Assembly: GCF_016861655.1 (NCBI RefSeq)
Contig: NZ_BOLN01000001.1
Location: 186,001-250,000, forward strand
Reading direction: 5' to 3'
From: Levilactobacillus lanxiensis
GTDB lineage: Bacteria; Bacillota; Bacilli; Lactobacillales; Lactobacillaceae
DNA length: 64,000 bases
Numbering within the stretch: the stretch's first letter is position 1; each line of letters begins with the position of its first letter. Made by a program: the position numbers and the translations under genes. Below, one piece after another: positions 1,427 to 63,829 of this stretch. The notes below the pieces were generated by a model, which saw only the letters and a program-made list of their open reading frames with translations, searched no databases and had not been told where the DNA came from.

Positions 1427-1716
1427 CGCCTCCGGGATGGTAAAAACTGAGCCGAAACGCAGTGGTGCTGGCCGTTCCCGCCGGCGGGCTCAAAGCGCCC
1501 TGCTGTGGGGTCGGTTCCAGCCTGAGAAACAGGCTTCCACCTCAACTTTGTGCCTGAAAGGCGGTCACAAAGGTTGTCCCATGGGCTAAGCTGAGAAAAT
1601 CACTCAGCTAAGGCCATCGACACAGCTGGTCACTTTGGCCCGCCTCTGGTCACTCACATCGACCCGGTCAGCTCATTTTCACCAGCCCTGCAGCTGACAC
1701 GGGTTTGACCCACAAT
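1427..1716 (+). repeat. Intergenic structured repeat, type A, copy A1
   Basis: Full-length copy. The left end CGCCTCCGGG is 88 bases from the start of the minus-strand gene at 1338; the right end reads GCTCATTTTCACCAGCC and then a CTGACACGGGTTT tail. Inside, GGCGGGC (1483-1489) pairs with GCCCGCC (1638-1644), CTTTGTG pairs with CACAAAG, and AGCTGAG pairs with CTCAGCT. No frame is conserved with other copies. Confidence 0.9.
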
Positions 1717-1802
1717 CCTACTTCCCATCTGCGCACGGATGGATTATTGCCTGCTGAAATTCTGACTGGTTTCACCACTATGGATGTCCTAACCATGTAA
1801 AA

Positions 1803-1845
1803 TAGACCGCTCATTTCACAACTACCTAGTGAGATGAACGGTCTA
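1803..1845 (-). terminator. Terminator of the SDR-tautomerase operon
   Basis: Long hairpin TAGACCGCTCATTTCAC / GTGAGATGAACGGTCTA. On the minus strand it is followed by TTTTA and lies 19 bases beyond the SDR stop codon. Confidence 0.8.
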
Positions 1846-1863
1846 CCTAACACACATATTCAC

Positions 1864-2577
1864 TTATAAAGTCGGTCGCAAAACAATTTCATTAATATCC
1901 ACGTTCGCTGGTTGCTCAATGGCAAAGACCACCGAAGCCGCAATATCCTCAGGCCGCAACTTCGGGACCGATTCCAGGTTAGCGTTGCGCTGGTCCGCAA
2001 AGAACCCCGTCTTCACAAATGCTGGGGAAACCATCATGGTCCTGATGTGTGCGTCAGCTTCCTCCGCACGAACGCCATCCATGATGGCCCGCACGCTAAA
2101 TTTGGTGCTGGCGTAAACCGTATTATTTTGCCCGACCTGATGCCCAGCTGTCGAATCGGTCGCAATGATCTGGCCACCCTGCTGCTTCTCCATGACCGGA
2201 ATCGCCGCAGCCAGGCCGTACAAGACACCCTTCACGTTGATGTCGATCATTTTTTCCCACTCATCGACCCGGCCCTCATTCATTGGCGCGAAACTCATCA
2301 CGCCAGCATTTAGGTCTAAAACATCAATCCGGCCATATTCAGCCAAGGCAAAATCAATCAACGCCTGAACCTCAGCCCGGTTACTGACATCGGTCGCCTT
2401 GAAAATCGCCTGGCCACCCGCTTGGTGAATGACCGCCGCGGTGGCTTGCAGGTCCGCTTCCTTACGCGCGGCCAACACGACGCGATGCCCATGACTCGCA
2501 GCTAGCAGCGCCGTTGCTTGACCGATGCCACTAGTTGCGCCCGTAATAATAATCGTCTTTGCTTGTGTCAAACCCAT
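1864..2577 (-). CDS. SDR family NAD(P)-dependent oxidoreductase
   Basis: A 237-residue classical short-chain dehydrogenase. The glycine-rich cofactor motif T12-GATSGIG-19, N90-A-G, catalytic Ser142 and Y155-x3-K159 are all present. I place the start at the ATG at 2577 because GAGG sits just before it; an in-frame ATG three codons upstream (2586) has no ribosome site. It follows a tautomerase gene by 34 bases on the same strand and ends at a strong hairpin, so the two are probably co-transcribed. The substrate cannot be told from sequence; NADP-dependent reduction of a carbonyl is the family expectation. Confidence 0.93.
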   Translation of the reverse strand: MGLTQAKTIIITGATSGIGQATALLAASHGHRVVLAARKEADLQATAAVIHQAGGQAIFKATDVSNRAEVQALIDFALAEYGRIDVLDLNAGVMSFAPMNEGRVDEWEKMIDINVKGVLYGLAAAIPVMEKQQGGQIIATDSTAGHQVGQNNTVYASTKFSVRAIMDGVRAEEADAHIRTMMVSPAFVKTGFFADQRNANLESVPKLRPEDIAASVVFAIEQPANVDINEIVLRPTL

Positions 2578-2611
2578 TCGCCTCATTTATTTAATTAAGT
2601 GCCACGCTAAG

Positions 2612-3004
2612 TTACTTCAGTTTTCCGTTCATAAACTGCGCCTCACCGTTGCCAAAGCTCCAGTCGGCCCGCGTATTCCCCACGATATTGATCATCACAT
2701 CAGCGGGGGCGACACCCGTACCAGCCGCGAGTTCCTTTACCAGCCGCGCGTAGAAGCGTTGCTTATCGTCCTCGGCGCGGGGGCTGGAGGTCAGGCTGAA
2801 CATCAGAAACTGATTCGTCCGCTCAAAGCCCAAGCCAACGTCTTGAATGATCATTTCTTCCGGGTCGTGCTGGGTCACGATTTGGTACCGGTCACGGGGC
2901 AACAAGTGTAGTTCTTCCGTCGCAACCTGATAGGAAATATCCAGAATCTTTTTGATTTCGGCTTTGCTGCGGCCTCTAAACATATCAATCCGTATTAATG
3001 GCAT
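2612..3004 (-). CDS. Tautomerase family protein (4-oxalocrotonate tautomerase superfamily)
   Basis: 130 residues beginning MPLIRIDMF. After removal of Met the N-terminal proline is the expected catalytic base of the superfamily. The length is about twice that of the minimal 4-OT subunit and fits the longer single-chain tautomerases found beside oxidoreductases in lactobacilli. The ribosome site AAAAGGAG is well placed before the ATG. It is upstream of the SDR gene in the same apparent operon, suggesting that both act on a small carbonyl or enol compound; that link is inference. Confidence 0.9.
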   Translation of the reverse strand: MPLIRIDMFRGRSKAEIKKILDISYQVATEELHLLPRDRYQIVTQHDPEEMIIQDVGLGFERTNQFLMFSLTSSPRAEDDKQRFYARLVKELAAGTGVAPADVMINIVGNTRADWSFGNGEAQFMNGKLK

Positions 3005-3187
3005 CGTAAAAACTCCTTTTCTGATTTCATTTCCACCCTGAATCTTACCACGGGTGGCTTCGGTAACTGGTTTGCACGACTCGCGCCATCACATCCGACG
3101 CGACACGCTAACAACAGAACTTAGCTTACTACGAAACGGTGCCAAATAACTTGATAATTGTCAATTTCAGGCTATTTCTGCCACTTT

Positions 3188-3226
3188 AAAAAAATCCGCC
3201 GTCCCAACCTCCCGGACAGCGGATTC
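3188..3226 (-). terminator. Terminator of the UvrA-like gene
   Basis: AATCCGC ... GCGGATT hairpin. On the minus strand it ends in seven T residues, just past the stop at 3236. Confidence 0.85.
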
Positions 3227-3235
3227 CCACACCTT

Positions 3236-5506: not shown

Positions 5507-5554
5507 CTTCTCTTCCCCTCTCATGGTTTTGGGCTAACGCTGTGTTATGGCCTT

Positions 5555-5824
5555 TAAAAATGGTGAAAACTGCGCCGGTACGCGGTGGTGTCCGTTCCCG
5601 GCGGCGGGCTCAAAGCGCCCTGCTGTGGGGCCGGTTCCAGCCTGAGGTACGGGCTTCCACCTCGACTTTGAGCCAAAGAACGGTCTCAAAGGTCGTCCCG
5701 TGGACTAAACTGAGAAAATCACTCAGTTAAGACCACCGACACAGCTGGTCACTTTGGCCCGCCTCTGGTCACTTACATCGACCGCGTTGGCTTATTTTCA
5801 GCATTTCCGCGGCTGACATAGCGT
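5555..5824 (+). repeat. Intergenic structured repeat, type A, copy A2
   Basis: The left inverted-repeat arm (TGGTGAAAACTG) starts 49 bases from the UvrA-like start codon. The hairpin AACTGAG / CTCAGTT replaces the AGCTGAG / CTCAGCT of A1, a compensatory change. The region from here to the next gene stop (6209) contains only a hairpin at 6022-6066. Confidence 0.9.
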
Positions 5825-6021
5825 TAGTCTGTACTTAATTCATGGATAACCCTTTAATTGATTTAATGACAGATAGTCTCAAGATATTAGTCAGATAATC
5901 ACTTTCCCTGCCATCAGCGCTACCGTTTCACCTTACCATATTCTAAAATTTTGTGCGGGGATAGCGACTATCAAGACCAGCCAGCGACTCATAACTTCGT
6001 CAGATTAATCTCTGAAATGAA

Positions 6022-6066
6022 ACAGGACTGCCCTTACAGACACTTAGTCTGAATGGGTAGTCCTGT
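6022..6066 (-). terminator. Probable terminator of the surface-protein operon
   Basis: Two nested stems: ACAGGACTGCCC / GGGTAGTCCTGT, with CAGAC / GTCTG inside. A short T-rich tail occurs on either strand. It lies about 140 bases past the lipoprotein stop, so assignment to that operon is tentative. Confidence 0.55.
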
Positions 6067-6208
6067 CTTATTTGACTCCTCCATGCTAGAGTTACCTAAA
6101 ATTATACATATCGGTTCCCTGGTAAGAACCAAAGGTTGAAAGTGTTCATTTAGAGTCCATACTAACCGGATAAATTCAGCAATACCCAGCCACGTAACAA
6201 ACCGTTAA

Positions 6209-7411: not shown

Positions 7412-7418
7412 TAAATAT

Positions 7419-13504: not shown

Positions 13505-13625
13505 TGCCGGGGATTCCGGCTGCGGCAGGTCAAGGATTTCGACGCTGGTGGGGCAGCCCTGAAGCCTGCGGGACGGTCTTCAGGGCACCAGGTCTCATCC
13601 TTGCCTGCCTCCGCCTCCATCCCCT
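13505..13625 (+). repeat. Divergent type A core (fragment)
   Basis: It lacks recognisable terminal repeats but keeps the nested core fold. GCAGG-CAAGGAT pairs with ATCCTTGCCTGC, enclosing the hairpin GCCCTGAAG / CTTCAGGGC, whose loop cctg...acggt also occurs at 61650. It lies directly after the YagU-like stop codon and before that gene's terminator. Confidence 0.55.
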
Positions 13626-17090: not shown

Positions 17091-17119
17091 GCTGCCACTT
17101 CCTTTTCTGTTTTGATGAG

Positions 17120-17149
17120 ACTACTGTATCACGTACTACTGTGTGTGTC
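17120..17149. promoter_or_regulatory. Direct repeat, candidate PadR operator
   Basis: Two ACTACTGT boxes 15 bases apart, 30-52 bases before the padR start codon. Confidence 0.35.
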
Positions 17150-17169
17150 AAAGTAATTTATCTGAAATA

Positions 17170-17405
17170 GTAAAATTGGTTTAGTGCAGGTTGTGTGGGA
17201 GTGGCCGCCTGCGGCTTCCAGGACTGCGCCTGCTGTGGGGTCGGTTCCCGCCAAAGTTCAGGCTCCCACCTCAACTTTTAGCCTTGAAACCCACAAGTCT
17301 AAAAGGTTGCCCCAGGCTGTAAGCCGGCTGAGAAACGCCGACTAACACCCTCGACACAGCTGGCTCCGTCCTGGCTTCCTCCGGCTCAGGTTGTGCGTTG
17401 AATTT
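17170..17405 (+). repeat. Type A repeat, divergent copy A3
   Basis: The terminal arms have decayed, but the core remains. CCAGGAC pairs with GTCCTGG, and AACTTTTAG pairs with CTAAAAGGTT, where other copies have CTTTGAG / CTCAAAG. The same CTGCTGTGGGGTCGG block is present. It stands head-to-tail with A4. Confidence 0.75.
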
Positions 17406-17452
17406 TACGATTTCAGCTAATTCGCTTTAGGTTTGGGGTTGGAGCTTAGTTT

Positions 17453-17740
17453 CGCCTCCGGGAGGGTGAAAATGAAGCGGAACGCGGTGATATTCGTTCC
17501 CGGCGGCGGGCTCAAAGTGCCCTGCTGTGGGGCCGGTTCCAGCCTGAGAATCGGGCTTCCACCTTGCCTTGAAACCTCGCTGAAATTCGCGAGTTTCCAA
17601 GGTCATCCCATGCTCTAAGTAGAGAAGTTCACTCTACTAAGACCATCGACACAGCTGGTCGCTTTGGCCCACCTCTGGTCACTGACATCCCCTAGCACGG
17701 CTCATTTTTACTATTCCTGCGGCTAACACTGGTTTAACCC
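17453..17740 (+). repeat. Type A repeat, copy A4
   Basis: Full copy with left end CGCCTCCGGGAGGGTGAAAA and right end CTCATTTTTACTA...CACTGGTTTAACCC. The hairpins differ from other copies but still pair: CCTTGAAAC / GTTTCCAAGG and AGTAGAG / CTCTACT. Confidence 0.9.
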
Positions 17741-17775
17741 ACACCAAATCCATAGCCACCTTCCCACTCCACGAC

Positions 17776-17806
17776 AAAAAACGCTCAGCAAGTTTCTACT
17801 GAGCGT
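17776..17806 (-). terminator. Probable terminator of the cdd transcript
   Basis: ACGCTCAG / CTGAGCGT hairpin with six T residues on the minus strand. The only minus-strand gene upstream is cdd, so repeat A5 would lie in the cdd 3' UTR. Between here and A5 nothing else is seen. Confidence 0.6.
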
Positions 17807-17982
17807 CACATTCTAAGTATTCAAAAATTTAACTAGCCTAACAAACCTAACAATCTGCGGTCGCTCATTAGACGCAAGTGATCACGCCCTCAACACCAAC
17901 AATGAATGGTGTCGTCCCTAGTCGTAGGAAAATTGAAAAGGACAAAACCAAGCTCCTTGAATCAATCGTAAATGGCCACATA

Positions 17983-18178
17983 CGTGTTAGCGACCAGAGG
18001 CGGGTCAAGGTTCCCGGCTGTGTCGATGCTCTAAGCTGAGGTTTCTCACTCAGCTTAGAGCATGGGACAACCTTTGAGACCGCACTTCAGGCTCAAAGGT
18101 GAGGTGGAAGCCCGCCCTTCGGCTGGAACCGGCCCCATAGCAGGGCACCTTGAACCCGACGCCGGGAGCGAACTTCGG
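17983..18178 (-). repeat. Type A repeat, copy A5
   Basis: Core-only copy, reversed. CGGGTCAAGG pairs with CCTTGAACCCG and AGCTGAG with CTCAGCT. Its left end is 17-22 bases past the cdd stop codon, and the border sequence next to it (GGTTAGTTC) carries that stop. Confidence 0.85.
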
Positions 18179-18194
18179 ATGGACCAATTTATGG

Positions 18195-18587
18195 TTAGTT
18201 CAAGTCGACGAAGGCACCGGGGAGGATGCCCTCAACCGTGGTCTCCGTGAAAGCACCCTTCTGGTTGGTCAGGTAGATTGGCGCATCGGCATCAAAGAAT
18301 TCAGAAATGACCTGGCGGCAGATGCCACAAGGGGCAATTGGACCGTCCGTGTTCCCGGTCACCAGCAAAGCCGTGAAGTGTTTTTCACCCGCAGCGATAC
18401 CGGAGAAGATTGCCGTCCGTTCGGCACAGTTGGTGGCACCGTACGAAGCGTTTTCGATGTTACAGCCACCGTAGATCTTGCCGCTGGCACCGACCGCTGC
18501 TGCACCTACGTGGAAATGTGAGTATGGGGTGTACGCCTTGTCGAGCATGTCAGTTGCGACTTTTAACAATTCTTGTTTATCAGCCAT
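18195..18587 (-). CDS. cdd: Cytidine deaminase
   Basis: 130 residues, the usual size for the homotetrameric bacterial enzyme that converts (deoxy)cytidine to (deoxy)uridine in pyrimidine salvage. Zinc ligands Cys54, Cys87 and Cys90 and the catalytic Glu56 are present in NCAERTA and PCGICRQ. The ATG at 18587 has a perfect AAGGAGG; the frame extends upstream to 18659 but has no ribosome site there. It is a single gene, followed by repeat A5 and a terminator. Confidence 0.97.
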   Translation of the reverse strand: MADKQELLKVATDMLDKAYTPYSHFHVGAAAVGASGKIYGGCNIENASYGATNCAERTAIFSGIAAGEKHFTALLVTGNTDGPIAPCGICRQVISEFFDADAPIYLTNQKGAFTETTVEGILPGAFVDLN

Positions 18588-22260: not shown

Positions 22261-22495
22261 CAAAAACACCTCCGTAGATTCATGTGCCTTTTACGACTCC
22301 ATTATGCTTGCTTTGTCATGCATTGTAAAGCGTTTACTTTGAAAATTAGCCATTTCTAAGAAACGCTAGGAAAGCTTAATCTAACGGCAATTGCAACAGG
22401 TCGTGTTACAATTTTTTGATGAAATTGGACGGTCCAATCTTGATTGCCGGCTTATCTAAATAATTAGATGCGGGTTAAACTAGTTTCGTTCATTC

Positions 22496-22690
22496 GCCTC
22501 CAGGACGGTGAAAATAAGCCGGGGCGCTGTGGGCGCACGTCCGGAGCCAAAGAGCGGTCTCCGAACTTACTTTGAGCCGCTAAGAACCGCGTCTCAAAGA
22601 TATCAGTTCCCTAAGCGGCTCCGCCACCAAGGGAACTCCCACGGCTAAGCTCATTTTCACCGTCCCTGCGGCTCACACTGGTTTAACCCG
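22496..22690 (+). repeat. Type B repeat, copy B1
   Basis: Shares the terminal arms with type A (CGCCTCCAGGACGGTGAAAA and GCTCATTTTCACCGTCC) but has a different interior. CTTTGAG / CTCAAAG and GTTCCCT / AGGGAAC stems are visible. Its left end faces ohyA. The rest of 22261-23101 holds only hairpins at 22840 and 23045. Confidence 0.88.
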
Positions 22691-24224: not shown

Positions 24225-24286
24225 CGTAAAAGTCATTTTATATTTAAGAGTTCAAAACCAACGTCCAGTTCAAGCTCACTAGCCCC

Positions 24287-24472
24287 AAACCAGTCTCAGC
24301 CGTGAGGGCGGTAAAAATGAGCCCAGCCGTGGGATTTACGATGCGCTAGCAGCGTAAATGGTGTCTTTGAGACTCGCTTCTTGAGGCTCAAAGCAAGTTC
24401 AGAGACCGCCCTTTGGCTCTGGGCGTCCTGCCCACCGCGTTCCGGTCTCATTTTTACCGCCCGGTAAGGCGC
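24287..24472 (-). repeat. Type B repeat, copy B2
   Basis: Reversed copy whose left end (CCCGGTAAGGCG) is 10 bases past the acyltransferase stop. Stems ATTTACG / CGTAAAT, CTTTGAG / CTCAAAG and CAGAG / CTCTG are visible. Confidence 0.9.
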
Positions 24473-27143: not shown

Positions 27144-27333
27144 GGCTAAACCAGTGTTAGCCGTGAGGGCGGAAAAAATGAGTCTAGCCGTGGGATTTAC
27201 GGTGCGCTAGCAGCGTAAATGGCGACTTTGAAACGCGGTCTTAGCGGTTCAAAGCGAGTCCAGAGACCGCCCTTTGGCTCTGGGCGTCCTGCCCACAGCG
27301 TTCCGATCTCATTTTTTCCGCCCGGTAAGGCGC
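27144..27333 (-). repeat. Type B repeat, copy B3
   Basis: Reversed copy, complete with both arms. Its left end (CCCGGTAAGGCG) is 65 bases before the add start codon. Stems ATTTACG / CGTAAAT and CTTTGAAAC / GGTTCAAAG (a variant of CTTTGAG / CTCAAAG) are visible. Confidence 0.9.
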
Positions 27334-27397
27334 CAACCAACGCCAAGTCTAGCCCAGAATGGCGTAGCACGCTACATATTGAAGGAGGAGTTCAGCA

Positions 27398-28490: not shown

Positions 28491-28662
28491 TATTGGTCCC
28501 AAAGCGCCCGACTACAGGTATTCAGCCGCTAAATGGTATACTTAAGTTAACGTAATTATTTTTTAGCGAACTTACAGTAATTTTTTTGCCAGCAGAAGGA
28601 TTTTAACCACCCAACCACCAACACACCTGCCACCCACGACCACATCTTTTAAAATTAACGTG

Positions 28663-28852
28663 GCTGTGAGTGACCAGAGGCGGGCCAAACCGGCCAGCTG
28701 TGTCGGTGGTCTTGGCTGACGTTCTGTGCCAGCCTAGCCCACGGGACAACCTTTGAGACCGCTCCTCAGGCTCAAAGTTGAGGCGGAAGCCCGACCTTTG
28801 GCTGGAGCCGACCCCATAGCAGGCCGGTTTGAGCCCGCCGCCGGGAACGCAA
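28663..28852 (-). repeat. Type A repeat, copy A6
   Basis: Reversed core copy without clear terminal arms. Its left end is 41 bases before the start of the recombinase-like gene. The hairpin arms near 28710-28740 have changed more than in most copies. Confidence 0.8.
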
Positions 28853-28892
28853 TCACAAAACCATTTATTTTTAAAGAAAGTGAGGCGGTTGG

Positions 28893-29717
28893 ATGCCGCA
28901 AGAATACCCCTACCAAGATGCCTTCAACCGGTTACTAACCGACCGGGCCATGGCCGAAGCCACGCGCGACGAGTACACGACCACGTTGAAGGATTTCTTC
29001 CATTACTTAGAGAACTTCAACCCAACTTATCAGAAGACCCACCGCGTGCGTGATCTCCAAACGCAAGACGTCGAGCAGTACCTCAGCATGTTGCTCACCG
29101 CCCGTCAAATTCAGAACCAGACCTATAACAAGGTGTTGTCGCACCTGAACATCTATTTCAAATTTTTGTTCTCGCACCGCTGGACACCCTACCTGCCAAC
29201 ACTCGACCTTAAAAGCAAGCCCAAACAGGCACCGCAACCGATCAATTATCGCTGGGTCGACGACCTGACCGACTACCTCGCCGATGAGCGGCTCCACATT
29301 TATACGCGCCTGACCCTCCTGCTGGTGTCGCAAGGCTATCCCGTGCAAAGTTTTCTCAAGCCTGGTGTGACGGAAAAAATCGATACCCACGACTGGCCAG
29401 CTACCGTCCAGCCCTTTCTCAAAACCTTCCGGGACTTCATCGACCCGCTCCAACAGCGGTTTCTTTGCGATGACTGGTTTCTCAAGCAACGGGCCGCGGC
29501 CGACCCCCATTTGACGTTGCCCGGCCTCCACAAGTATTTAAAGCCGGACGAAGCGGTCATTGGCTTTGCCCTCAGCCCCACCGTCCTCTATCAAGGTTAC
29601 TTAGTTAACTATCTCCGGCGCCACCCGCAAAAGACCGACAGAGAGGTCACCGCGGCGTTGAACCTGCCACCGGATTCCATCGATTATTACCGGCGATTGA
29701 GCCAACGTGCTGATTAG
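28893..29717 (+). CDS. Tyrosine-recombinase-like protein lacking catalytic residues
   Basis: 274 residues. Residues 1-100 fit the SAM-like core-binding domain of phage integrases (YTTTLKDFFHYLE, LSHLNIYFKFLF). The rest aligns loosely with the catalytic domain, but the box-I arginine is absent (GYPVQSFL where active enzymes have GLRxSEL), the box-II HxxR is not seen, and only a Tyr-rich IDYYRRL end remains. It starts with GAGGCGG before the ATG. It is probably a full-length but inactive DNA-binding relative rather than a fragment. There are no phage genes around it. Confidence 0.75.
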   Translation: MPQEYPYQDAFNRLLTDRAMAEATRDEYTTTLKDFFHYLENFNPTYQKTHRVRDLQTQDVEQYLSMLLTARQIQNQTYNKVLSHLNIYFKFLFSHRWTPYLPTLDLKSKPKQAPQPINYRWVDDLTDYLADERLHIYTRLTLLLVSQGYPVQSFLKPGVTEKIDTHDWPATVQPFLKTFRDFIDPLQQRFLCDDWFLKQRAAADPHLTLPGLHKYLKPDEAVIGFALSPTVLYQGYLVNYLRRHPQKTDREVTAALNLPPDSIDYYRRLSQRAD

Positions 29718-30636: not shown

Positions 30637-30655
30637 GGCAAACGGATGACTCATT

Positions 30656-30860
30656 TCGTTCCCGGCGGTGGGTTCAAAGCGCCCTGCTGTGGGGTCGGTT
30701 CCAGCCTGTGGAGCTGGCTTCCACCTCGACTTTGAGCCAAAATGCGGTCTCAAAGGTCGTCCCATGGGCTAAGCTGAGAAAAACCGCTCAGCTAAGACCA
30801 TCGACACAGCCGGGCACTTTGGCCCACCTCTGGTCACTTACATGGATCACCCATTTTCCT
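30656..30860 (+). repeat. Type A repeat, copy A7
   Basis: Core copy in sense orientation after the deacetylase gene. GGTGGG pairs with CCCACC where A1 has GGCGGGC / GCCCGCC; AGCTGAG / CTCAGCT is conserved. The terminal arms are short. Confidence 0.88.
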
Positions 30861-30930
30861 AAGCGCTACGTTTCTTCCGAACGGGTTTTGACTATCCGCT
30901 CGAATGTTTGATGAAATGTAAGCGTACCCA

Positions 30931-40011: not shown

Positions 40012-40266
40012 GGGCTAAACCAGCGTTAGCCGCAGGGCTGGGGAAATTGGATTGACTAGAATAGTGTCAGTGACCAGAGGCGGATCAAAGTACCTAGCCC
40101 ACGGGACAACCTTTGAGACCGCTCCTCAGGCTCAAAGTTGAGGTGAAAGCCCGCCCTTCGGCTGGAACCGGCCCCATAGCCAGGCACTTTGAATCCGCCG
40201 CCGGGAACGACCAGTACCGCGGCCAATCCCTATTTTCACCAACCCGGAGGCAACTACCTGGTTTAC
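40012..40266 (-). repeat. Type A repeat, copy A8
   Basis: Reversed copy with both arms (GCTAAACCAGCGTTAGCC ... TTTTCACCAACCCGGAGG). GGCGGAT / ATCCGCC pair here, a compensated change from GGCGGGC / GCCCGCC; the AGCTGAG hairpin is deleted. The left border GGTTTACTCC supplies the stop codon of the adjacent minus-strand gene. Confidence 0.9.
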
Positions 40267-41589: not shown

Positions 41590-41856
41590 CTGGGGGTAAC
41601 GAGAATGCAAGGACAGTTCCGTTCCCGGTGGTGGGCTCAAGATGCCCTGCTATGGGGTCGGTTTCAGCCTGTAAAGCGGGCTTCCACCTCGACTTTGAGC
41701 CAAAAATCGGTCTCAAAGGTCGTCCCGCGGACTAGGCTGAGAAAGTCCCCCAGCCAAGACCGCCGACACAGCCGGCCATCTTGGCCCACCTCTGGTCACT
41801 CACATCGACCATGTCATTATCACACCCCTAAACCACTGATGAGTATGTGTTTAACC
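41590..41856 (+). repeat. Type A repeat, copy A9
   Basis: Left end 47 bases from the acetyltransferase start. CAAGATG / CATCTTG and GGTGGGC / GCCCACC pair here, both changed together relative to A1; GGCTGAG faces CCCAGCC (one mismatch). It stands tail-to-tail with A10; the 41857-42078 interval is featureless AT-rich DNA. Confidence 0.9.
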
Positions 41857-42078
41857 CATAAATGTATTCCTTGTTAATAGCTAGTTGGCACTGATTACCA
41901 GCTCTTCGATTCTATTTAGCCCTAGTCAATTTTTATCTATATAAATCTGCTCTTCTAACAAAATTCATCTCCAACATAAACGATCAACCAATAAATGCCG
42001 ACCAGATAAAGCCAGCCGGCATCAATAAACAAATTTATAAGCATCCCAGCACACTCACAACAAACCGGCCAGCCCACG

Positions 42079-42379
42079 GACTAAACAAGTGTCAGCCGCA
42101 GGGCTGGGGAAAACTGGACTGACTAGGCCAGTGTCAGTGACCAGAGGCGGACCAAGGTTCCCGGCTGTGTCGATGGCCTTAGCTGAGGTTTCTCACTCAG
42201 CTTAGCCCATGGGACAACCTTTGAGACCGCCCCTCAGGCTCAAAGTTGAGGTGGAAGACCGCCTTTCAGTCTGGAGCCGGCCCCACAGCAGGGAACCTTG
42301 AGGCCGCCGCCGGGAACGACCAGCACCGCGGCCAGGCCCAGTTTTCACCAGCCCGGAGGCGCGGACAACGGCCAGTTTA
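42079..42379 (-). repeat. Type A repeat, copy A10
   Basis: The most complete copy, reversed: CTAAACAAGTGTCAGCCGC at one end, CACCAGCCCGGAGGCGCG and CCAGTTTAGTCC at the other. CCAAGGTTCCC pairs with GGGAACCTTG. Its left terminus contains the TAA of the amidohydrolase gene. Confidence 0.92.
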
Positions 42380-43285
42380 GTCCATGAGTGCTTGCCAGTT
42401 GGTGGTGAAGATGGCTTGCTGCTGCGTCGCCGTCAAGTCCATATCCCGCACCGCCTGCTCGATCACCGCCGTCGGTCCCACCGGTGGAATTCCAAACGGC
42501 GAATCCGTGCCAAACAGCACGTGGTCCAACCCAAAGAAATCGACCGCAAGTTCCAACGCCTTAGGATTGCCCAGGATAGCAGTATCCACGTAGAACTTTT
42601 TAAAGTCCGCGTAATTTTCGGCTGACTGGATGTACTTGATGCGTTGGCTGAAGTACGGCACCATGGCCCCGGCGTGGTGCACGATAACCTTTAAGCCGGG
42701 ATACTTGCGGAAGTATTTGGCCGCCACAATACCATTCATGGCCTGCGTCAGCTCGTACTCCCAGCTAAAGGTCAGCTCGTTGTCGGTCTTGTGCGTATCG
42801 AAAACGGGATGGAGCCAGATGGGCGCACCGACCGCCGCTAATTTGGCAAAGATCGGTTCGTAGGCCGCGTCCGTGATGGGCTTACCCAATGCTTGGGTAA
42901 ATAGTTGCACCCCAACCAAGGCATCGCTACCGGCCACCTGCTCGTCAATCAGCTGTAAGGCGGCGGGCACATTGTTCAGTGGCAACATAGCCACACCAGC
43001 CGGAAAAATGTCACGGTTGGCGCGGACCAGGTCTGCGATTTCCGCGTTGGCCTGTCGGCAGAGTTCGGCCGCCTGATCCGGACCCACGAAGTCTTCCGGG
43101 TTCAAATTGACCGCGGAAATAATCTGTTGGTGATCCGCTGGCAGACTGGCCCGGTGTTGCGCCACATCCGTCAACAGATCATTTTTCATGTACGGAAAGT
43201 TGTCTAAGATATTCGGGTGAATCGCATTCATTTTGGCTAAAAATTTTGCGGGTAAGACGTGCGCAAAGACATCAATGACCGTCAT
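42377..43285 (-). CDS. Amidohydrolase family protein (ACMSD-like TIM barrel)
   Basis: 302 residues. The sequence follows the metal-dependent decarboxylase/hydrolase pattern: IDVFAHVLP at the N-terminus (one His where the family often has HxH), PIWLHPVF, VIVHHAGAM and FGTDSPFG with the metal-binding Asp. Members decarboxylate or hydrolyse aromatic or amide substrates. GGGGGA lies before the ATG, and the gene starts 12 bases after the NAD(P)H-binding gene. It is last in the detoxification operon. Confidence 0.9.
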   Translation of the reverse strand: MTVIDVFAHVLPAKFLAKMNAIHPNILDNFPYMKNDLLTDVAQHRASLPADHQQIISAVNLNPEDFVGPDQAAELCRQANAEIADLVRANRDIFPAGVAMLPLNNVPAALQLIDEQVAGSDALVGVQLFTQALGKPITDAAYEPIFAKLAAVGAPIWLHPVFDTHKTDNELTFSWEYELTQAMNGIVAAKYFRKYPGLKVIVHHAGAMVPYFSQRIKYIQSAENYADFKKFYVDTAILGNPKALELAVDFFGLDHVLFGTDSPFGIPPVGPTAVIEQAVRDMDLTATQQQAIFTTNWQALMD

Positions 43286-45975: not shown

Positions 45976-46857
45976 ATGGAATTACGTGTTCTACGCTACT
46001 TTTTAATGGTCGTTCAGGAAAAAAACATTTCCAAAGCCTCGGAACGGCTACACGTCTCACAGCCGACCGTGTCACGCCAGATTAAGGATCTCGAAGATGA
46101 ACTGGGCACGACCCTCTTTGAACGGGGCAGTCGGACCATCCAACTCACCTCCGATGGCGAATACTTTGCTAACCAGGCCCGCCAGATTCTCTCCCTGACA
46201 GACAAGACGGTGGCCAATATTCATCAGGAAAGCGATATCCGCGGCGCCGTCTTCATCGGCAGCGCCGAGGCCCGCAGCATGTTGACGGTGGCCCAGGCCA
46301 TTCGCCGGTTGAACCGCCAGTACCCCCACATTCAAATCAATGTCGTCAGCACCGATGCCGCCGAGATTCACCAGCACTTGACCTCCGGCGTTTTTGACTT
46401 TGGCGTGGTGATGGAACCCCTCGACAAATCCGATTACGATTTTCTCCGGCTACCCGGTGAGAGCCGCTGGGGCCTGCTGGTCCAAAATAGCTCACCCCTG
46501 GCCCAACAGGCCACCGTCAGCCTCGACGATATCGACCATACCAAACTCATCTTGCCGCAACAGGGGGGGAGTCGCCGCATTCACGCTGTCTTCGGTCTCG
46601 ACCAAGATGATCTCGACGTCGCCGCCACCTACAATCTCTTGTACAACGCCTCCCTGCTGGTTTCCGCCGGCGTTGGAAACGCGCTGGGACTCGACGGCAT
46701 CGTCAATACCAACCAGTCTGATTTGACCTTCGTGCCGTTGGCGCCACGGACGTCTTCTGGGACTAGCTTGGTTTGGCTGAAGGGGGCGCGGCTGTCGTTG
46801 GCGGCACAGGCGCTGCTGACGCAGATTCGCGCCGAACTAACGCCCACTGAAAATTAA
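45976..46857 (+). CDS. LysR family transcriptional regulator
   Basis: 293 residues. The winged helix-turn-helix (RVLRYFLMVVQEKNISKASE..VSQPTVSRQI) is at the N-terminus and the effector domain spans about 90-290. AAGGAG lies before the ATG at 45976. It is divergent from the DUF2255-MerR-reductase operon, the usual arrangement for a LysR regulator and its target. Repeat A11 follows 18 bases after the stop. Confidence 0.94.
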   Translation: MELRVLRYFLMVVQEKNISKASERLHVSQPTVSRQIKDLEDELGTTLFERGSRTIQLTSDGEYFANQARQILSLTDKTVANIHQESDIRGAVFIGSAEARSMLTVAQAIRRLNRQYPHIQINVVSTDAAEIHQHLTSGVFDFGVVMEPLDKSDYDFLRLPGESRWGLLVQNSSPLAQQATVSLDDIDHTKLILPQQGGSRRIHAVFGLDQDDLDVAATYNLLYNASLLVSAGVGNALGLDGIVNTNQSDLTFVPLAPRTSSGTSLVWLKGARLSLAAQALLTQIRAELTPTEN

Positions 46858-46875
46858 GCTTGGCGTGTGGGAGTA

Positions 46876-47162
46876 CGCCTCCGGGGCGGTGTAAATGGGC
46901 CGTGACGCTGTGGGCGCCCGTCTGCCGTTCCCGGCGGCGGGCTCAAAGTGCCCTGCTGTGGGGCCGGTTCCAGCCTGGAGAACGGGCTTCCACCTCGACT
47001 TTGAGCCAAAGTGCGGTCTCAAAGGTCGTCCCATGCTCTAAGTAGCGGAAAACCACGCTACTAAGACCATCGACACAGCTGGGCACTTTGGCCCGCCTCT
47101 GGTCACTAACGTTTGCCACGCGTGGCCCATTTTCACCACCCCTGCGGCTGACACTCCTTTAA
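46876..47162 (+). repeat. Type A repeat, copy A11
   Basis: Sense orientation after lysR. The hairpin AGTAGCG / CGCTACT differs from all other copies but pairs perfectly. The outer part GTGACGCTGTGGGCGCC is otherwise typical of type B, so this copy links the two types. Confidence 0.92.
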
Positions 47163-47279
47163 TTTTCAGTGTGGGTGATTCTGGTCTCCTATGCTGACTT
47201 CTTTCAATTTGCCGTCAGTTATAACTACATTTGCTTTTATTCTAATAACCTTTATTCATTCTATTCTGCTAACATAACC

Positions 47280-50769: not shown

Positions 50770-51015
50770 CTGGCAGCCTCTGAAACGTGCTACGCGAGCC
50801 AGACTCCTGCGCTTAACCCCGATTCAGGGTAGACCTTTAATTCTACCTTGCTTTAGGGCATTTGACTGGTTCTTCGCGGAACTATCCTGGTCCTGGCAGC
50901 CTCTGAAACGTGCTACGCGGGGCAGGTTCCTGCGCTTAACCCCGATTCAGGGTAGGCCTTAAATTCTACCTTGCTTTAGGGCATTTGACTGGTTCTTCAC
51001 AGAACTATCCTGGTC
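50770..51015. repeat. Tandem repeat, two exact-length 123-bp units plus partial third
   Basis: CTGGCAGCCTC(T/C)GAAACGTG begins at 50770, 50893 and 51016. Units 1 and 2 differ at a few positions; GGTAGA / TCTACC and GTTC / GAAC hairpins are kept. The third unit runs directly into C2. A partial related block precedes unit 1 (about 50701-50745). No reading frame is apparent. Confidence 0.85.
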
Positions 51016-51992: not shown

Positions 51993-52026
51993 ATTTAGTT
52001 CCTCCTTCAACGCTAATAAGCTTGGT

Positions 52027-52268
52027 TTTCGTGAAAATAAAGAGTGGTATGTTGCCGTTCCCGGCGGCGGGCTCAAGACGGCCTGCTGTGGGGTCGGTTC
52101 CAGACTGTGGGGCGGTCTTCCACCTCGACTTTGAGCCTGAAAGGCGGTCTCAAAGGTCGTCCCGTGTTCTAGGCTGGGAAAGAACCCCAGCCAACAACAC
52201 CGACACAGCTGGCCATCTTGGCCCGCCTCTGGTCACTCACATGGATCACTCATTTTCACTAGCCAATC
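52027..52268 (+). repeat. Type A repeat, copy A12
   Basis: Left end 35 bases from the AKR start codon. GGCTGGG / CCCAGCC and AGAC / GTCT arms replace AGCTGAG / CTCAGCT and AGCC / GGCT of A1. From 52269 to 52667 there is AT-rich DNA with the promoter of the next gene but nothing clearly definable. Confidence 0.9.
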
Positions 52269-52667
52269 TGCTACAATCTAAACTTAATTGGTTACCAAGC
52301 CTATCGCTTATATTTCTGAGTATAGTACCTTCGTGTTGGTCTAAGGCAAGAGAAATCGGCAACTTTTTTCTTGATTTATCACGCAATCAGTTAATTTATT
52401 TAAATAATTTTTCTATCTGTTCACTAATCACATGCTAAATCGCTAAAACACCTTTAATAGCGGGATTCTTACGCACACTTCACCGTTGAATCACCCTCAA
52501 TATTCCATTCGTGTTTGTCATTTTAATCGCTATGGATATTTGCAATTATATTCAAATGGCATATACTCACTAATTGTAAGTGAAAAGTTAAAAGTTCTCC
52601 GTGTTCTCGCAGACGCGGATAATCAACCGCTGACTCGAACTCGTTTTTTAAATGGAGGAATTTAATT

Positions 52668-53057: not shown

Positions 53058-53072
53058 GACAAGTGACGTTCA

Positions 53073-53275
53073 GCGCCTCCGGGCGGGTGAAAATGAGAGC
53101 GGAACGCGGTGGGCGGACGCCCGAAGCCAAAGAACGGTCTTCGAACTTACTTTGAGTCACTGAGAGTCGTGTCTCAAAGATACCAATTGCCTAAGCGGCC
53201 AAGACCGCCACTAAGGCAATTCCCACGGCTGGCCACATTTTCACCCGCCCTCCGGCTAACGGCCACTTAGCCCAA
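53073..53275 (+). repeat. Type B repeat, copy B4
   Basis: Sense orientation between the DUF2255 stop and its terminator. CGCCTCCGGGCGGGTGAAAA at the left; AATTGCCT / AGGCAATT replaces GTTCCCT / AGGGAAC of B1, and CGAAG / CTTCG replaces CGGAG / CTCCG. Confidence 0.9.
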
Positions 53276-53326
53276 CGAGGCAACTAATCAACTTTGATAT
53301 GTGTAACACTCTAAATAGATTCACGC

Positions 53327-53505: not shown

Positions 53506-53815
53506 GGCTAAACCAGTTCCGGCCGCAGGGCTGGTGAAAATTAGCCACCCCGTCAGTATTAGTGACCAGAGGCGGATCAAAGTGACCAGCTGTGTCGATG
53601 GTCTTAGCTGAGGTTTCTCACTCAGCTTAGCCCATGGGGCAACCTTTGAGACCGCTTCTCAGGCTCAAAGTTGAGGTGGAAGCCCGCTCTTTGGCTGGAA
53701 CCGACCCCACAGCAGGGCGCTTTGAATCCGCCGTCGGGAACGAATGCCACAGGCCACAGCGTCACGGCTCATTTTCACCGGACCGGAGGCGCAGACAAAG
53801 ACTAGTTTAGCCCAA
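53506..53815 (-). repeat. Type A repeat, copy A13
   Basis: Complete reversed copy. GCTAAACCAGTTCCGGCCGC at one end and CATTTTCACCGGACCGGAGG then ACTAGTTTAGCCC at the other, 28 bases before the ABC ATPase start. GGCGGAT / ATCCGCC as in A8. It stands tail-to-tail with B4. Confidence 0.92.
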
Positions 53816-53842
53816 AATCAATTTAGAAAGAGAGACCTGATT

Positions 53843-54544: not shown

Positions 54545-54553
54545 GTGATGACC

Positions 54554-57127: not shown

Positions 57128-57235
57128 AAATGAAAAAATTCTAATTTGACAAATTTTATATCGACCACAAAAAACAGGTTTCACCTCAAAGTTACGGGGT
57201 GAAGCCTGTTTGATTTACATCGAACTGCTTTCAAT

Positions 57236-58504: not shown

Positions 58505-58822
58505 GAGCGTCAACGCTCCTTTCAATTTCGTACGTTCTATTATACAAAACCCAGGGGCTGATGGCGCGCTAAAATCCAAACTTGCTAAAATTTTAACTTC
58601 TTACAAATCTATTTGTCATATTATTACCATAGTGTTATTTTTCGGGGCGTACTGACCTAGTTAACCCGATTGTTAAGTCCCCGCACCCACCCCAACAGAA
58701 AGAGTCCACCACCCATCGGGTACCATGCGGAAGTGCTACCCTAAGAAAGACTACCGGTCCCTCGGCGCTCATCTTCGTGTCGACCAGCCACCACTCCCAA
58801 TTTTCCACCCGAGACTTCCCCC

Positions 58823-58851
58823 TTGACAGGCTATGTTTACAGTTGTAAACT
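58823..58851 (+). promoter_or_regulatory. copY-copB promoter with cop box
   Basis: TTGACA (58823-58828), 17-base spacer, TAAACT (58846-58851). The spacer holds TACAGTTGTA (58838-58847), a match to the CopY operator TACANNTGTA, so repression would block the promoter directly. The remaining bases 58505-58822 contain no gene. Confidence 0.85.
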
Positions 58852-58983
58852 CAAGTCACCAATCAAGGTTAGGTTGGCTCAAACCACCACCTTGATTTCC
58901 CCTCAGTCGCTCACTATCACCGCGGCTGACCCGCACCACTTCCCCTAACCAATAACCGTTCCACTAAAAAAGGAGTGTTCACC

Positions 58984-59430
58984 ATGGCCACAGCAGAATT
59001 AGCCGTCACCATTTCCGACGCAGAATGGCGCGTCATGCGAATCGTCTGGACGTTAAAAGAGACCGACAGCCGCACCATCATTGATTTGCTCGAACAACAA
59101 CACGATTGGAAGCCCGCCACCATCAAAACCTTGATTGGCCGGCTGGTCAAGAAGGGCGCGCTGGCCACGACCAAGCAGGGCCGCCAGTTCATTTACACCC
59201 CATTGATTCCGGAACAAGCTGCCATGGATACCGCGCTGACCAATGAAATCAGTCAAATGTGCGCGATGCACCGTGGGACCGCGATTGCTCACGTGTTAGA
59301 AGACACCGAAATGAGCCGCGCCGACGTCCAAAATTTAATCGACGTGCTCGCTAAGAAATTACCAACCGCCCCCGAGTCAGTCCACTGCGACTGCCTCCCC
59401 GACGGCTGCGAAGGGAGTTGTGCAGAATGA
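58984..59430 (+). CDS. copY: CopY/TcrY family copper-responsive repressor
   Basis: 148 residues. A BlaI/MecI-like winged helix (SDAEWRVMRIVWTLKETDSRTIIDLL..WKPATIKTLIGRLVKKG) is followed by a C-terminal cysteine cluster CDCLPDGCEGSC. Classical CopY has CxCx4CxC; here the last pair is spaced CxxxC. AAGGAG precedes the ATG. Its stop overlaps the copB start (ATGA). It binds the cop box upstream and releases on Cu(I). Confidence 0.95.
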   Translation: MATAELAVTISDAEWRVMRIVWTLKETDSRTIIDLLEQQHDWKPATIKTLIGRLVKKGALATTKQGRQFIYTPLIPEQAAMDTALTNEISQMCAMHRGTAIAHVLEDTEMSRADVQNLIDVLAKKLPTAPESVHCDCLPDGCEGSCAE

Positions 59431-61583: not shown

Positions 61584-61594
61584 ATTGGCTTTAC

Positions 61595-61700
61595 CGCCTA
61601 CGGATTGTCAGGGACGCCACCCGGTGGGGCCCGCGCGAAGCCTGAGAAACGGTCTTCGCCCTCGCCTTGAAATCCTCCGGCTAACCAATCATTCGGTTGA
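61595..61700 (+). repeat. Type A-like fragment
   Basis: GCGAAG / CTTCGC hairpin with the loop cctgagaaacggt found in type A, plus GCCTTGAAATC. It lies just after the copB stop in sense orientation, before the terminator. Terminal arms are absent. Confidence 0.5.
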
Positions 61701-61750
61701 ACCCCTAGCCTTTAACTTCAGCGCCAGCTTTAAATTCTACTAACGCAACT

Positions 61751-61801
61751 AAAAATAGCGTAAGACCTGTCACTCACTCGACAAGTCTTACGCTATTTTT
61801 G
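61751..61801. terminator. Terminator between copB and the DMT transporter
   Basis: AATAGCGTAAGAC / GTCTTACGCTATT with A and T runs on both sides; it can serve both convergent transcripts. Confidence 0.88.
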
Positions 61802-61873
61802 TACAACATAATTGAATTTGCTTAATGATTCAGAAAACACAAAATGCAGGAACCAAGTGGACTCACCACCTGC

Positions 61874-62077
61874 ACTAAACCAGTCTAAGCCGTGAGGGCA
61901 TAAAAAATGAGCTCAGTCGTGGGATTTACGGCGCATAGCGACGTAAATGGTGATTTTGAGACTCGCTTCTTAGAGGCTCAAAACAAGCCCAGAGACCGCT
62001 CTTCGGCTCTGGGCGTCCTCACCACCGCGTTCCGGCCTATTTTCACCGCCCGGCAAGGCGACCCAGACCCGTTTAGT
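61874..62077 (-). repeat. Type B repeat, copy B5
   Basis: Complete reversed copy. Stems TTTACG / CGTAAA and CAGAG / CTCTG. Its left border GTTTAGTCC contains the TAA of the transporter gene, and the copy lies between that stop and the shared terminator. Confidence 0.9.
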
Positions 62078-63008
62078 CCGGATTGGTGCGGAAGCGGCGG
62101 ATTAGACGAATCATCTGGCGCCCATTTAACGACAGCACCATCACCGCTAAGATCACCAGTGCGCCGCCAATCAAGTCGAACTTGGTCAGCTGAACGTTGA
62201 GGAACATCACGGAAAATGCCGTGGCGGACAGGGGTTCAAACGCGTCCAGCAAGCTGGCCGTGGTTGGCAAGATGTAGCCCAGCGCGTGCGCAAACATCAG
62301 GAATGGAATAACTGTTCCGAAGACAATAATAATCCCAATCATGCTCCAGCCGGCCCAGGACAACGTCACGTGTTCCTGCCAAACGGGTCCGAAAACATTT
62401 AAACAGATGCCGGCCACTAGCAGGCCCCAGCCGGTCACGGAAACGGCGCCAAACTTGGGCAACAGTGGCCGCGGAATCAGCGTGTTCGTCGCAACTCCGA
62501 TGGCTGACAGTCCACCCCAGAACAGGACGACCGGTGAAATGGCCAGGCTGTTGAGGTGCCCGTGCGTCACAATCAATAGCGTCCCGATGAAGGCAATCGC
62601 CATCCCCATGGCCTCGGGCCGCGTTGGCGTCACGTGCTTGAATACTAAGAAATAGATACTAATGATGAACGGTCCGAGGAACTGAATAATTGTGGCAACC
62701 GGTGCATTGCCGAATTTAACGGCTTCGAAATAGCACAGCTGAACCGGCACCAATCCCAATAGGCCGTAGCTGACGACGCGCAGGGCCGTGCCCCGCTGGC
62801 ACCAAATTTCAAATGGCTTGATGCCAATCACTTGGCCAAAGACCAGTAGAATAATCCCGGCACTGATCATGCGGACCTGGGTCAGCCACAGTGCCGTCAC
62901 TTCGGGGTTCATCGTAAACAGCGTGCTTGCCGCAACCCCTGAGATGCCCCACAAGATGCAGGCCACACTTGCCAGTAACACGCCGCGTAAATGATGTTGT
63001 GGAGTCAT
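62073..63008 (-). CDS. EamA/DMT family transporter
   Basis: 311 residues with ten predicted helices in two EamA repeats (WGISGVAASTLF early; LFWGGLSAIGVATNTL in the second half), typical of RhaT/YdcZ-like permeases that move small metabolites. A basic C-terminal tail (RRFRTNPD) ends at the border of repeat B5. GGGTGGGG precedes the ATG. Single gene; substrate unknown. Confidence 0.92.
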   Translation of the reverse strand: MTPQHHLRGVLLASVACILWGISGVAASTLFTMNPEVTALWLTQVRMISAGIILLVFGQVIGIKPFEIWCQRGTALRVVSYGLLGLVPVQLCYFEAVKFGNAPVATIIQFLGPFIISIYFLVFKHVTPTRPEAMGMAIAFIGTLLIVTHGHLNSLAISPVVLFWGGLSAIGVATNTLIPRPLLPKFGAVSVTGWGLLVAGICLNVFGPVWQEHVTLSWAGWSMIGIIIVFGTVIPFLMFAHALGYILPTTASLLDAFEPLSATAFSVMFLNVQLTKFDLIGGALVILAVMVLSLNGRQMIRLIRRFRTNPD

Positions 63009-63235
63009 AGCTGCCCCACCCGTGTCAGTCCAAATTTCATAATCAGTCTCCCTCTCTTTGTGCCGATTTATGCATTATTTTATAAACGGCAAGGCTATGC
63101 CAACCATCGCCGTTCTTGCATTCTAAAATTAACGAGCACTGACCAGTATAACAAAAATGACGAAAAGTCCCGCCCATTTCAGGGAATTTTCACGAGATTC
63201 TTAGTCTTAAGCGTTTTCTTTTTTGGGAAATAAAA

Positions 63236-63266
63236 ACGAGGCCACCTTTGACAGTTAGCCTCGTCC
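63236..63266 (-). terminator. Terminator for a minus-strand transcript entering from the right
   Basis: ACGAGGC / GCCTCGT with the T-run (TTTTTATTT) on the minus strand. No minus-strand gene lies close by, but a frame ending at 63955 would read through repeats B6 and A14 to this point. Confidence 0.65.
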
Positions 63267-63337
63267 AAAACAAACTTATTCTTAGCCCACACAATCATAG
63301 TCAATGACGACGTAGCTAAAGAATCCGGCTGGTTTGG

Positions 63338-63558
63338 GGGCTAAACCAGTCTTAGCCGCAGAGCTGGGGAAAATGAGCCAGTCGTGGAAGTGACCAGAGG
63401 TGAGCCAAGGTGACTAGCTGTGTCGATGGTCTTAGCTGAGCGGTTTTCCTCAGCTTAGAGCATGGGACAACCTTTGAGACCGCCCCTCAGGCTCAAAGTT
63501 GAGGTGGAAGCCTGCCTCTCAGGCTGGAACCGGCCCCACAGCAGGGCACCTTGGGCGC
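63338..63558 (-). repeat. Type A repeat, copy A14
   Basis: Reversed, head-to-tail with B6. AGCTGAG / CTCAGCT conserved. The flank TCCGGCTGGTTTGG before its right end also precedes B6. Confidence 0.88.
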
Positions 63559-63610
63559 GCACCAGTAACCCCCTCAACCAACAGAAAAACCAAAGAGTCC
63601 GGCTGGTTTG

Positions 63611-63829
63611 GAGCTAAACCAGTCTTAGCCGCAGGGCTGGGGAAAATGAGCTCAGCCGTGGGAGTTACCTTTGCGGGTTTCCCGCTTAGGTAACTGCTAT
63701 CTTTGAGACGCGCTTCTCAGCGGCTCAAAGTAAGTCTGGAGACCGCCCTTCGGCTCCAGACGGCGCCCACAGCGTCACGGCTCATTTTCCCCAGCCCGGA
63801 GGCGCTAACAACGACCAATTTACCCCCAA
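63611..63829 (-). repeat. Type B repeat, copy B6
   Basis: Complete reversed copy. AGTTACCT / AGGTAACT replaces ATTTACG / CGTAAAT, and CTGGAG / CTCCAG replaces CAGAG / CTCTG: compensated changes in two stems. Confidence 0.9.

What the first reader, a model, noticed from the sequence alone, without database searches (positions are those of the whole stretch)
1427..63829. A dense family of intergenic elements with shared termini and conserved fold
About twenty copies of 190-300 bp occur in 64 kb, all between genes. They share imperfect terminal inverted repeats (left CGCCTCCGGGnTGGTGAAAA, right the reverse of it plus CTGACACTGGTTTA). Hairpin arms differ between copies but pair in each. For one stem: AGCTGAG/CTCAGCT (A1), AACTGAG/CTCAGTT (A2), AGTAGAG/CTCTACT (A4), AGTAGCG/CGCTACT (A11), GGCTGGG/CCCAGCC (A12). 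For another: GGCGGGC/GCCCGCC (A1), GGCGGAT/ATCCGCC (A8, A13), GGTGGGC/GCCCACC (A9). For a third: CTTTGAG/CTCAAAG (most), CTTTGTG/CACAAAG (A1), CTTTTAG/CTAAAAG (A3). Such compensatory change means the fold, as RNA or as extruded DNA, is under selection or was so during spread.
Basis: seen in the sequence. Interest (0 to 1): 0.9.

Follow-up and report, generated by a model that had tools for sequence, protein, structure and literature searches.

The report
Cloverleaf-folding DNA repeats in lactobacilli
Hundreds of short non-coding DNA repeats appear to lie between the genes of this lactobacillus; each can fold into the same four-armed shape, the shape looks like a property of the DNA rather than of an RNA product, and some copies sit between a stretch of neighbouring DNA and a mirror-image copy of it, which hints at an unusual way of copying.

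Summary
Confirmed and extended. The window (Levilactobacillus sp.) holds 20 copies of an intergenic repeat in two main forms (A, about 270 bp; B, about 185 bp); I estimate about 400 per genome (300-950). All share one fold: a basal stem and three hairpins. On 63 cores from ten genomes, 24 of 37 pairs change on both sides. Rfam has no match at its thresholds. A covariance model finds the family in 34 of 35 Levilactobacillus genomes and 9 of 40 sampled Lactobacillaceae genera.

The fold behaves as a DNA property: orientation to genes is even, and G.U and A.C mismatches are about equal on the transcribed strand (37:46), against 22:3 in RNase P RNA of the genus. Orthologous sites swap A and B cores. 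Direct target duplication is not detectable; instead 46 of 201 full copies have copy-specific inverted flanks (0 of 402 swapped), and 9 of 61 adjacent coding ends are copied in inverted form beyond the element (0 of 366).

Best reading: a non-autonomous foldback DNA repeat turned over by exchange between copies and, probably, foldback (template-switch) synthesis. No mobiliser was found.

The parts
1419..1709 (+). form A copy with terminal inverted repeats (worked example)
   Evidence: nhmmer 315.6 bits; R1 139 bits
1502..1629 (+). cloverleaf core of this copy: closing stem 1502-1510 with 1621-1629, hairpin 1 about 1511-1541, hairpin 2 1543-1576, hairpin 3 1581-1617
   Evidence: consensus folds; coordinates counted by hand from the row window:1497-1631 of alignment A1
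5560..5827 (+). form A copy
17203..17422 (+). copy of a third subfamily (C-like)
17446..17738 (+). form A copy with terminal repeats
17976..18176 (-). form A core with diverged outer ends; hairpin 3 differs on both arms from the orthologous copy in wangkuiensis and mulengensis
22489..22686 (+). form B copy; mulengensis has a form A core between the same ends at this site
24285..24472 (-). form B copy; the coding end at 24482 has an inverted copy just outside the far (low-coordinate) end
27145..27337 (-). form B copy
28658..28856 (-). form A core, diverged outer ends
30654..30869 (+). form A core, diverged outer ends; not present at this site in cerevisiae
40014..40252 (-). form A copy with an internal deletion (hairpin 3)
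41617..41823 (+). form A core, diverged outer ends
42080..42368 (-). form A copy, 9 bp after the stop of the gene ending at 42377
42377..42408 (-). 3' end of the adjacent coding sequence (amidohydrolase family), apparent source of the inverted flank
42055..42084 (+). inverted, diverged copy of that coding end at the far side of the element; its last bases are also the element's terminal repeat
46871..47163 (+). form A copy, 14 bp after the stop of the gene ending at 46857
46845..46857 (+). 13-nt coding end including the stop codon; exact inverted copy at 47159-47171
52031..52272 (+). form A core, diverged outer ends; internal deletion in wangkuiensis and mulengensis, not present at this site in cerevisiae
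53068..53271 (+). form B copy
53507..53799 (-). form A copy with terminal repeats
61874..62061 (-). form B copy
63340..63560 (-). form A copy, left end not matched by the model
63613..63810 (-). form B copy
13513..13616 (+). weak, possibly related foldback sequence
   Evidence: R1 E=0.016; strong predicted hairpin
61614..61772 (+). remnant of a B copy that is present at the orthologous site in wangkuiensis and mulengensis
   Evidence: R1 E=0.033; alignment

Best explanation
This is a non-autonomous, non-coding, foldback DNA repeat family of Lactobacillaceae. Each copy is a near-palindrome that can extrude as a basal stem with three hairpins. Shown: a fixed fold with paired change; even orientation to genes; no RNA-strand signature; sites shared between species; A and B cores and single hairpins exchanged at fixed sites; no detectable direct target duplication; copy-specific inverted flanks within some 30-40 nt of the ends in about a fifth of full-length copies, which in some cases copy the end of the neighbouring coding sequence. 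Inferred: when the element is inserted or replicated, the nascent strand folds back on the element and copies its own flank, which writes the inverted flank and can repair or extend stems; recombination through the shared ends replaces cores. The enzyme that first spread the family is unknown; one acting on folded single-stranded DNA would fit the lack of target duplication, but I found no partner gene.
For: Fold and covariation. DNA rather than RNA: orientation in tandem gene pairs A 33 same/33 opposite, B 15/10, no depletion between divergent genes; G.U:A.C on the predicted transcribed strand 37:46 (A) and 16:15 (B) against 22:3 in RNase P RNA. Shared sites: in 101 of 107 comparisons with both flanks matched the orthologous interval holds a family member. 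Exchange: 15 of those 107 directional comparisons show an A/B swap, at five clear sites and one ambiguous one, plus one more site; alignments; hairpin swap at 17976. No direct repeat: 10.7 against 10.8 for swapped partners. Inverted flanks: 16.0 against 11.0, 46 of 201 score 20 or more against 0 of 402; 9 of 61 coding ends score 22 or more against 0 of 366, and 0 of 61 reach 20 in direct orientation. Sites without an element: 12 genomes score 13-21 in a 400-nt search, own 29 and wangkuiensis 26.
Against: 155 of 201 full copies and 48 of 61 coding ends show no inverted flank at a score of 20. The earlier test found no inverted excess 28-70 nt outside the ends (12.2 against 11.7; 11.3 against 11.3), so the effect is short. 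Part of the signal may be copy-specific variation of the element's own terminal repeat, and the last bases of several coding-end matches are that repeat; the swapped controls share its consensus but not its copy-specific variants. One genome (G007) has a B copy after the same gene with no inverted flank (score 12), and the best element-free score (21, G015) is not far below wangkuiensis. Flank pairs mostly decay: of 152 complementary positions across species 139 unchanged, 9 far-side only, 1 coding-side only, 2 changed on both sides and still complementary, 1 changed on both sides and not. Template switching alone would not make stems evolve several times slower than variable loops. Comparisons are not all independent: some sites appear in two or three species and a few fetched loci overlap. 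No fresh insertion was caught.
Confidence: 0.47

Rival explanations
1. An ordinary MITE family spread by an IS transposase now lost or outside my sample. Target duplications have eroded, and the inverted flanks are extensions of the element's own terminal repeat, chance, or pre-existing palindromes such as terminators.
For: Short, non-coding, terminal inverted repeats, intergenic, high copy number; many copies are shared by several species, so duplications could be gone; PMC10969869 (passage seen) says direct repeats wane with time; inverted similarity is confined to the neighbourhood of the ends.
Against: Inverted similarity survives where direct similarity is at chance; in some copies it reaches into coding sequence; no comparable inverted copy in 12 of 12 element-free genomes for one gene; no pair of lone ends spaced widely enough to hold a gene in 1.57 Mb scanned; GC 0.53-0.63 in the 20 window copies against 0.51 for the window, while that review calls MITEs typically AT-rich.
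Confidence: 0.28
2. A REP-like family moved as folded single-stranded DNA by a Y1 HUH (IS200/IS605 or TnpA-REP type) transposase that recognises the bulged hairpins.
For: No target duplication (that IS200/IS605 elements make none is recalled, not looked up); hairpin 2 in A and hairpins 1 and 2 in B carry a fixed bulge; folded single-stranded REP with a bulge is the substrate of E. coli TnpA-REP (PMC8266576, passages seen).
Against: Y1_Tnp is not found in G012 and G002, which are rich in elements; the own genome has two. Inverted flanks are not expected from this mechanism (recalled, not tested).
Confidence: 0.12
3. A structured regulatory RNA or mRNA element (terminator, stabiliser or sRNA) maintained by selection at the RNA level.
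For: Covariation; constraint in place, with invariant columns changing 1-2% in A against 9.4% in other intergenic DNA.
Against: Even orientation and normal frequency between divergent genes; no G.U excess in the pooled strand (15 G.U, 29 A.C in A; 10 and 8 in B) or in the transcribed strand, while RNase P shows it; no Rfam match at gathering thresholds.
Confidence: 0.08

Closest known systems
Prokaryotic MITEs (review PMC10969869, passages seen)
   Same: Short, non-coding, intergenic, terminal inverted repeats, strong predicted fold, high copy number
   Different: No detectable direct target repeats; copy-specific inverted flanks; interchangeable cores; no IS partner found in the part scanned; GC-rich, whereas the review calls MITEs typically AT-rich
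REP/BIME and TnpA-REP (PMC8266576, passages seen)
   Same: Hundreds of intergenic palindromes; hairpins with a conserved irregularity; tandem arrays occur
   Different: 165-290 bp with a three-hairpin cloverleaf; the REP GTAG motif was not sought; Y1 genes do not follow element number
Quasipalindrome template switching (PMC7202029 abstract and introduction; PMC8794818 abstract, introduction and passages)
   Same: Writes reverse-complement copies and makes imperfect palindromes more perfect, so it can mimic compensatory change
   Different: Described there as a mutation process at individual sites; here tied to a dispersed repeat family and reaching into coding ends
Stem-loop families of bacterial genomes (PMC2267715, two passages seen)
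   Same: Survey of repeated stem-loop families, including Bcr1
   Different: The one Lactobacillus in the passages seen is L. johnsonii; whether any of its families resembles this one was not checked

Membership tests
MITE | terminal inverted repeats | tested here: met
   diverged in five window copies
MITE | short and without a coding gene | tested here: met
   165-290 bp, no overlap above 60 bp with genes predicted by my caller
MITE | direct target-site duplication | tested here: not met
   direct similarity of flanks equals swapped flanks in 201 copies (10.7 against 10.8; score 18 or more in 3 of 201 against 2 of 402); old copies could have lost it
MITE | autonomous IS with the same ends | tested here: inconclusive
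   none in 1.57 Mb sampled; whole genome not scanned for end pairs
REP/BIME | 20-40 bp palindrome with GTAG-type tag | tested here: not met
   size 165-290 bp; the tag itself was not sought
REP/BIME | cognate TnpA-REP (Y1) gene in the genome | tested here: inconclusive
   2 Y1_Tnp in own, 0 in G012 and G002; kinds of Y1 gene not told apart
structured RNA | covariation with G.U tolerated on one strand | tested here: not met
   control
structured RNA | match to a named Rfam family | tested here: not met
   0 at gathering threshold for the window; six weak matches far below threshold for 17100-18300
structured RNA | transcript | not testable with these tools
   no expression data

The most novel reading that the evidence does not exclude
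A new class of bacterial mobile repeat that spreads by foldback DNA synthesis: the folded element primes copying of its own flank, so each insertion is marked by an inverted, not a direct, duplication of host sequence, and the same process keeps the cloverleaf stems paired.
Probability: 0.25. Interest if true: 0.82.

Novelty: new variant of a known kind. Interest (0 to 1): 0.62.

Why it matters
Compensatory change is widely read as proof of a functional RNA. Here is a dense natural family with strong covariation that fails the RNA-strand test passed by RNase P RNA of the same genus, so it is a caution and a test set. The inverted flanks, if they mark insertion, point to a copying mechanism that I did not see described for bacterial repeats in the rows listed by my paper searches, and ortholog series across Lactobacillaceae make it testable.

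Tried and rejected
Rfam gathering and weak-threshold searches: nothing credible. Y1_Tnp as mobiliser: presence does not follow element number. Search for end pairs around a gene: 12 lone end matches, pairs on one locus less than 80 bp apart. Recent insertion with a clean empty site: the presence/absence cases I aligned were mostly internal deletions, tandem duplications, element-in-element cases or core swaps. First ortholog count by pairwise alifold was circular, because that structure cannot contain a mismatch; replaced by a fixed consensus fold (in 39 some pairs were counted twice). First inverted-flank test used unequal anchors: near the ends it also showed an excess (15.5 against 11.8; 16.2 against 12.1), 28-70 nt out none; one search is the better anchored one. 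First RNase P control mixed strands and is void; replaced. Genus restriction, suggested, was overturned. A copy number near 1000, suggested by the window, was lowered by stretches not chosen by hits: 16 copies in 160 kb, 8 of them in one stretch. For alignment A1 I used 63 of the 94 cores listed, leaving out by choice eight own copies and most of the divergent subfamilies; three more had been skipped there for length. Papers on this family: seven searches of the held library showed none that describes it among the rows listed; two lists were cut (20 of 257, 20 of 72), and I saw titles and starts of abstracts only. Two further searches were on mutation mechanisms. Most subscription papers are not held. 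Odds were lowered slightly on checking (best reading 0.50 to 0.47, novel case 0.28 to 0.25; MITE rival raised 0.25 to 0.28), because limits the inverted flanks to the ends and part of the signal can be terminal repeat.
Full report
WHAT IS THERE. The window is G000:C1:186001-250000 of a 3.03-Mb genome in 24 contigs; the window has 50.7% GC. Twenty copies lie in the window: 14 of form A or a close relative and 6 of form B. In the window plus 20 own stretches chosen for hits, 464 kb, one search found 161 copies; in eight stretches not chosen by hits, 160 kb, there are 16, half of them in one stretch (the covariance model finds 14). Filling the rest at the latter density gives about 400 per genome; the window alone would give about 950 and the eight stretches alone about 300.

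ANATOMY. Read inwards, the right end has a sharp boundary at GGGTTAAACC; the left end is weaker outside CGCCTCCGGG. Inside, both forms fold into a basal stem and three hairpins around a four-way junction. Other species carry further subfamilies with the same plan. On 63 cores from ten genomes, 96.0% of cells are standard pairs (shuffled 83.5), 24 of 37 pairs change on both sides, and sliding the partners drops paired cells to 30-47%. Model R1, built from these cores, finds 34 of 35 Levilactobacillus genomes (own included) and none of 33 other genomes at E 1e-4. A wider sample of 251 Lactobacillaceae genomes gives 48 with matches at E 1e-9, in 9 of 40 genera. So the family is wider than one genus but patchy.

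DNA, NOT RNA. In the own genome 155 copies have 91 tandem, 32 divergent and 32 convergent gene contexts (all adjacent pairs 250, 56, 58; intergenic gaps of 250 bp or more 92, 40, 35), and orientation to the genes is even: A 33:33, B 15:10. If one RNA strand were selected, G.U should exceed A.C in stems. At pairs that are mainly Watson-Crick, orthologous A copies show 15 G.U and 29 A.C single changes, B 10 and 8. Polarised by the flanking genes the numbers in tandem contexts are 37:46 and 16:15. RNase P RNA in 21 Levilactobacillus genomes gives 22:3, p 1.6e-4, and 51:12 in all 30 sequences. These are counts of sequences, not of events, and the control compares species while the element counts compare copies. 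The 15:29 in A leans to the other strand, but weakly. The gene calls are my own codon-usage caller, not an annotation.

EVOLUTION AT FIXED SITES. In 101 of 107 comparisons among own, wangkuiensis and mulengensis with both flanks matched, the orthologous interval holds a family member (76 of the same form, 15 A against B, 10 best matched by the divergent model; 6 none). Neutral yardsticks between own and wangkuiensis in the window are 17.9% at fourfold sites and 9.4% in other intergenic DNA. In 30 A ortholog pairs without wholesale exchange, invariant columns changed 1.1% (stem) and 1.8% (unpaired), variable stem columns 3.6%, variable unpaired columns 16.9%; in 13 such B pairs 1.1, 3.3, 4.0 and 7.5%. 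The split at 10% difference was my choice, and some sites enter with two or three species pairs. Eleven A pairs had many differences, with 42 paired double changes; at 17976 hairpin 3 differs on both arms. Whole cores swap as well: the 15 A/B comparisons fall on five clear sites and one ambiguous site, and one more site is. Of the three sites aligned, two show both flanks and both ends preserved; at the third the left side is preserved and the right flank near the element aligns poorly. This is good evidence of exchange between copies, probably by recombination through the shared ends (inference). It also means that covariation among copies is not by itself proof of selection. The slow stems remain unexplained: neither exchange nor template switching predicts them, so some constraint on the DNA fold or biased repair is needed.

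INVERTED FLANKS. Around the ends of 201 full copies (orthologs included, so not all independent) there is no direct repeat (10.7 against 10.8 for swapped partners) but clear inverted similarity (16.0 against 11.0; 46 of 201 at 20 or more, 0 of 402 swapped). It does not reach far: 28-70 nt outside the ends an earlier test saw none. Part of it may be copy-specific variation of the terminal repeat itself. The cleaner test uses coding ends within 75 nt of an element: the far flank carries an inverted copy in 13 of 61 cases at a score of 20 or more (swapped 2 of 366) and 9 of 61 at 22 or more (0 of 366); the same test in direct orientation gives 0 of 61 at 20 or more. The last bases of several of these matches, at the stop codon, coincide with the terminal repeat. 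Window examples: 42377-42408 with 42055-42084, and the exact 13-mer 46845-46857 with 47159-47171. For the gene ending at 42377, 15 genomes were compared (own and 14 others): own and wangkuiensis have the element and the inverted copy (29, 26); G007 has a B copy without it (12); 12 have no element within 400 nt and score 13-21. At one position the coding base differs between own and wangkuiensis and the far copy differs with it, but over 152 positions most change is decay of the far side.

MECHANISM. The nearest published process is template switching at quasipalindromes, in which the nascent strand copies itself (PMC7202029, abstract and introduction; PMC8794818, abstract, introduction and passages, which says that it can create and maintain hairpins). 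I propose that folded copies provoke this, writing the flank in inverted form, while recombination swaps cores. How the family first reached hundreds of sites is not shown.

STANDING. It works like a MITE or REP family, but direct target repeats were tested and not met, so I do not file it as a MITE, and it does not have the size of a REP. I call it a new variant of dispersed bacterial foldback repeats.

Noticed in passing
window 50770-51015: Two tandem copies of a 123-bp unit, 93% identical; not matched by the models of this family.
   Followed up: no
window 13513-13616: Very stable predicted foldback with an inner bulged hairpin like those of the family, but a weak model score; possibly another subfamily.
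   Followed up: partly
window 28893-29717: Open frame of 274 aa that matches only the N-terminal SAM-like domain of phage integrases in Pfam; no catalytic domain at the threshold used.
   Followed up: no
L082, L099, L102: Local tandem arrays of element plus flank that differ in unit number between species.
   Followed up: partly
wang 62189-62385 (stretches L110-L113) and the cerevisiae ortholog: The far flank resembles the inverted coding end of each species' own version, which would mean re-copying after divergence; one site only, read by eye.
   Followed up: partly
G021 and G031: Two Levilactobacillus genomes with no match and one match to the model; losses or early branches would help to date the family.
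   Followed up: no
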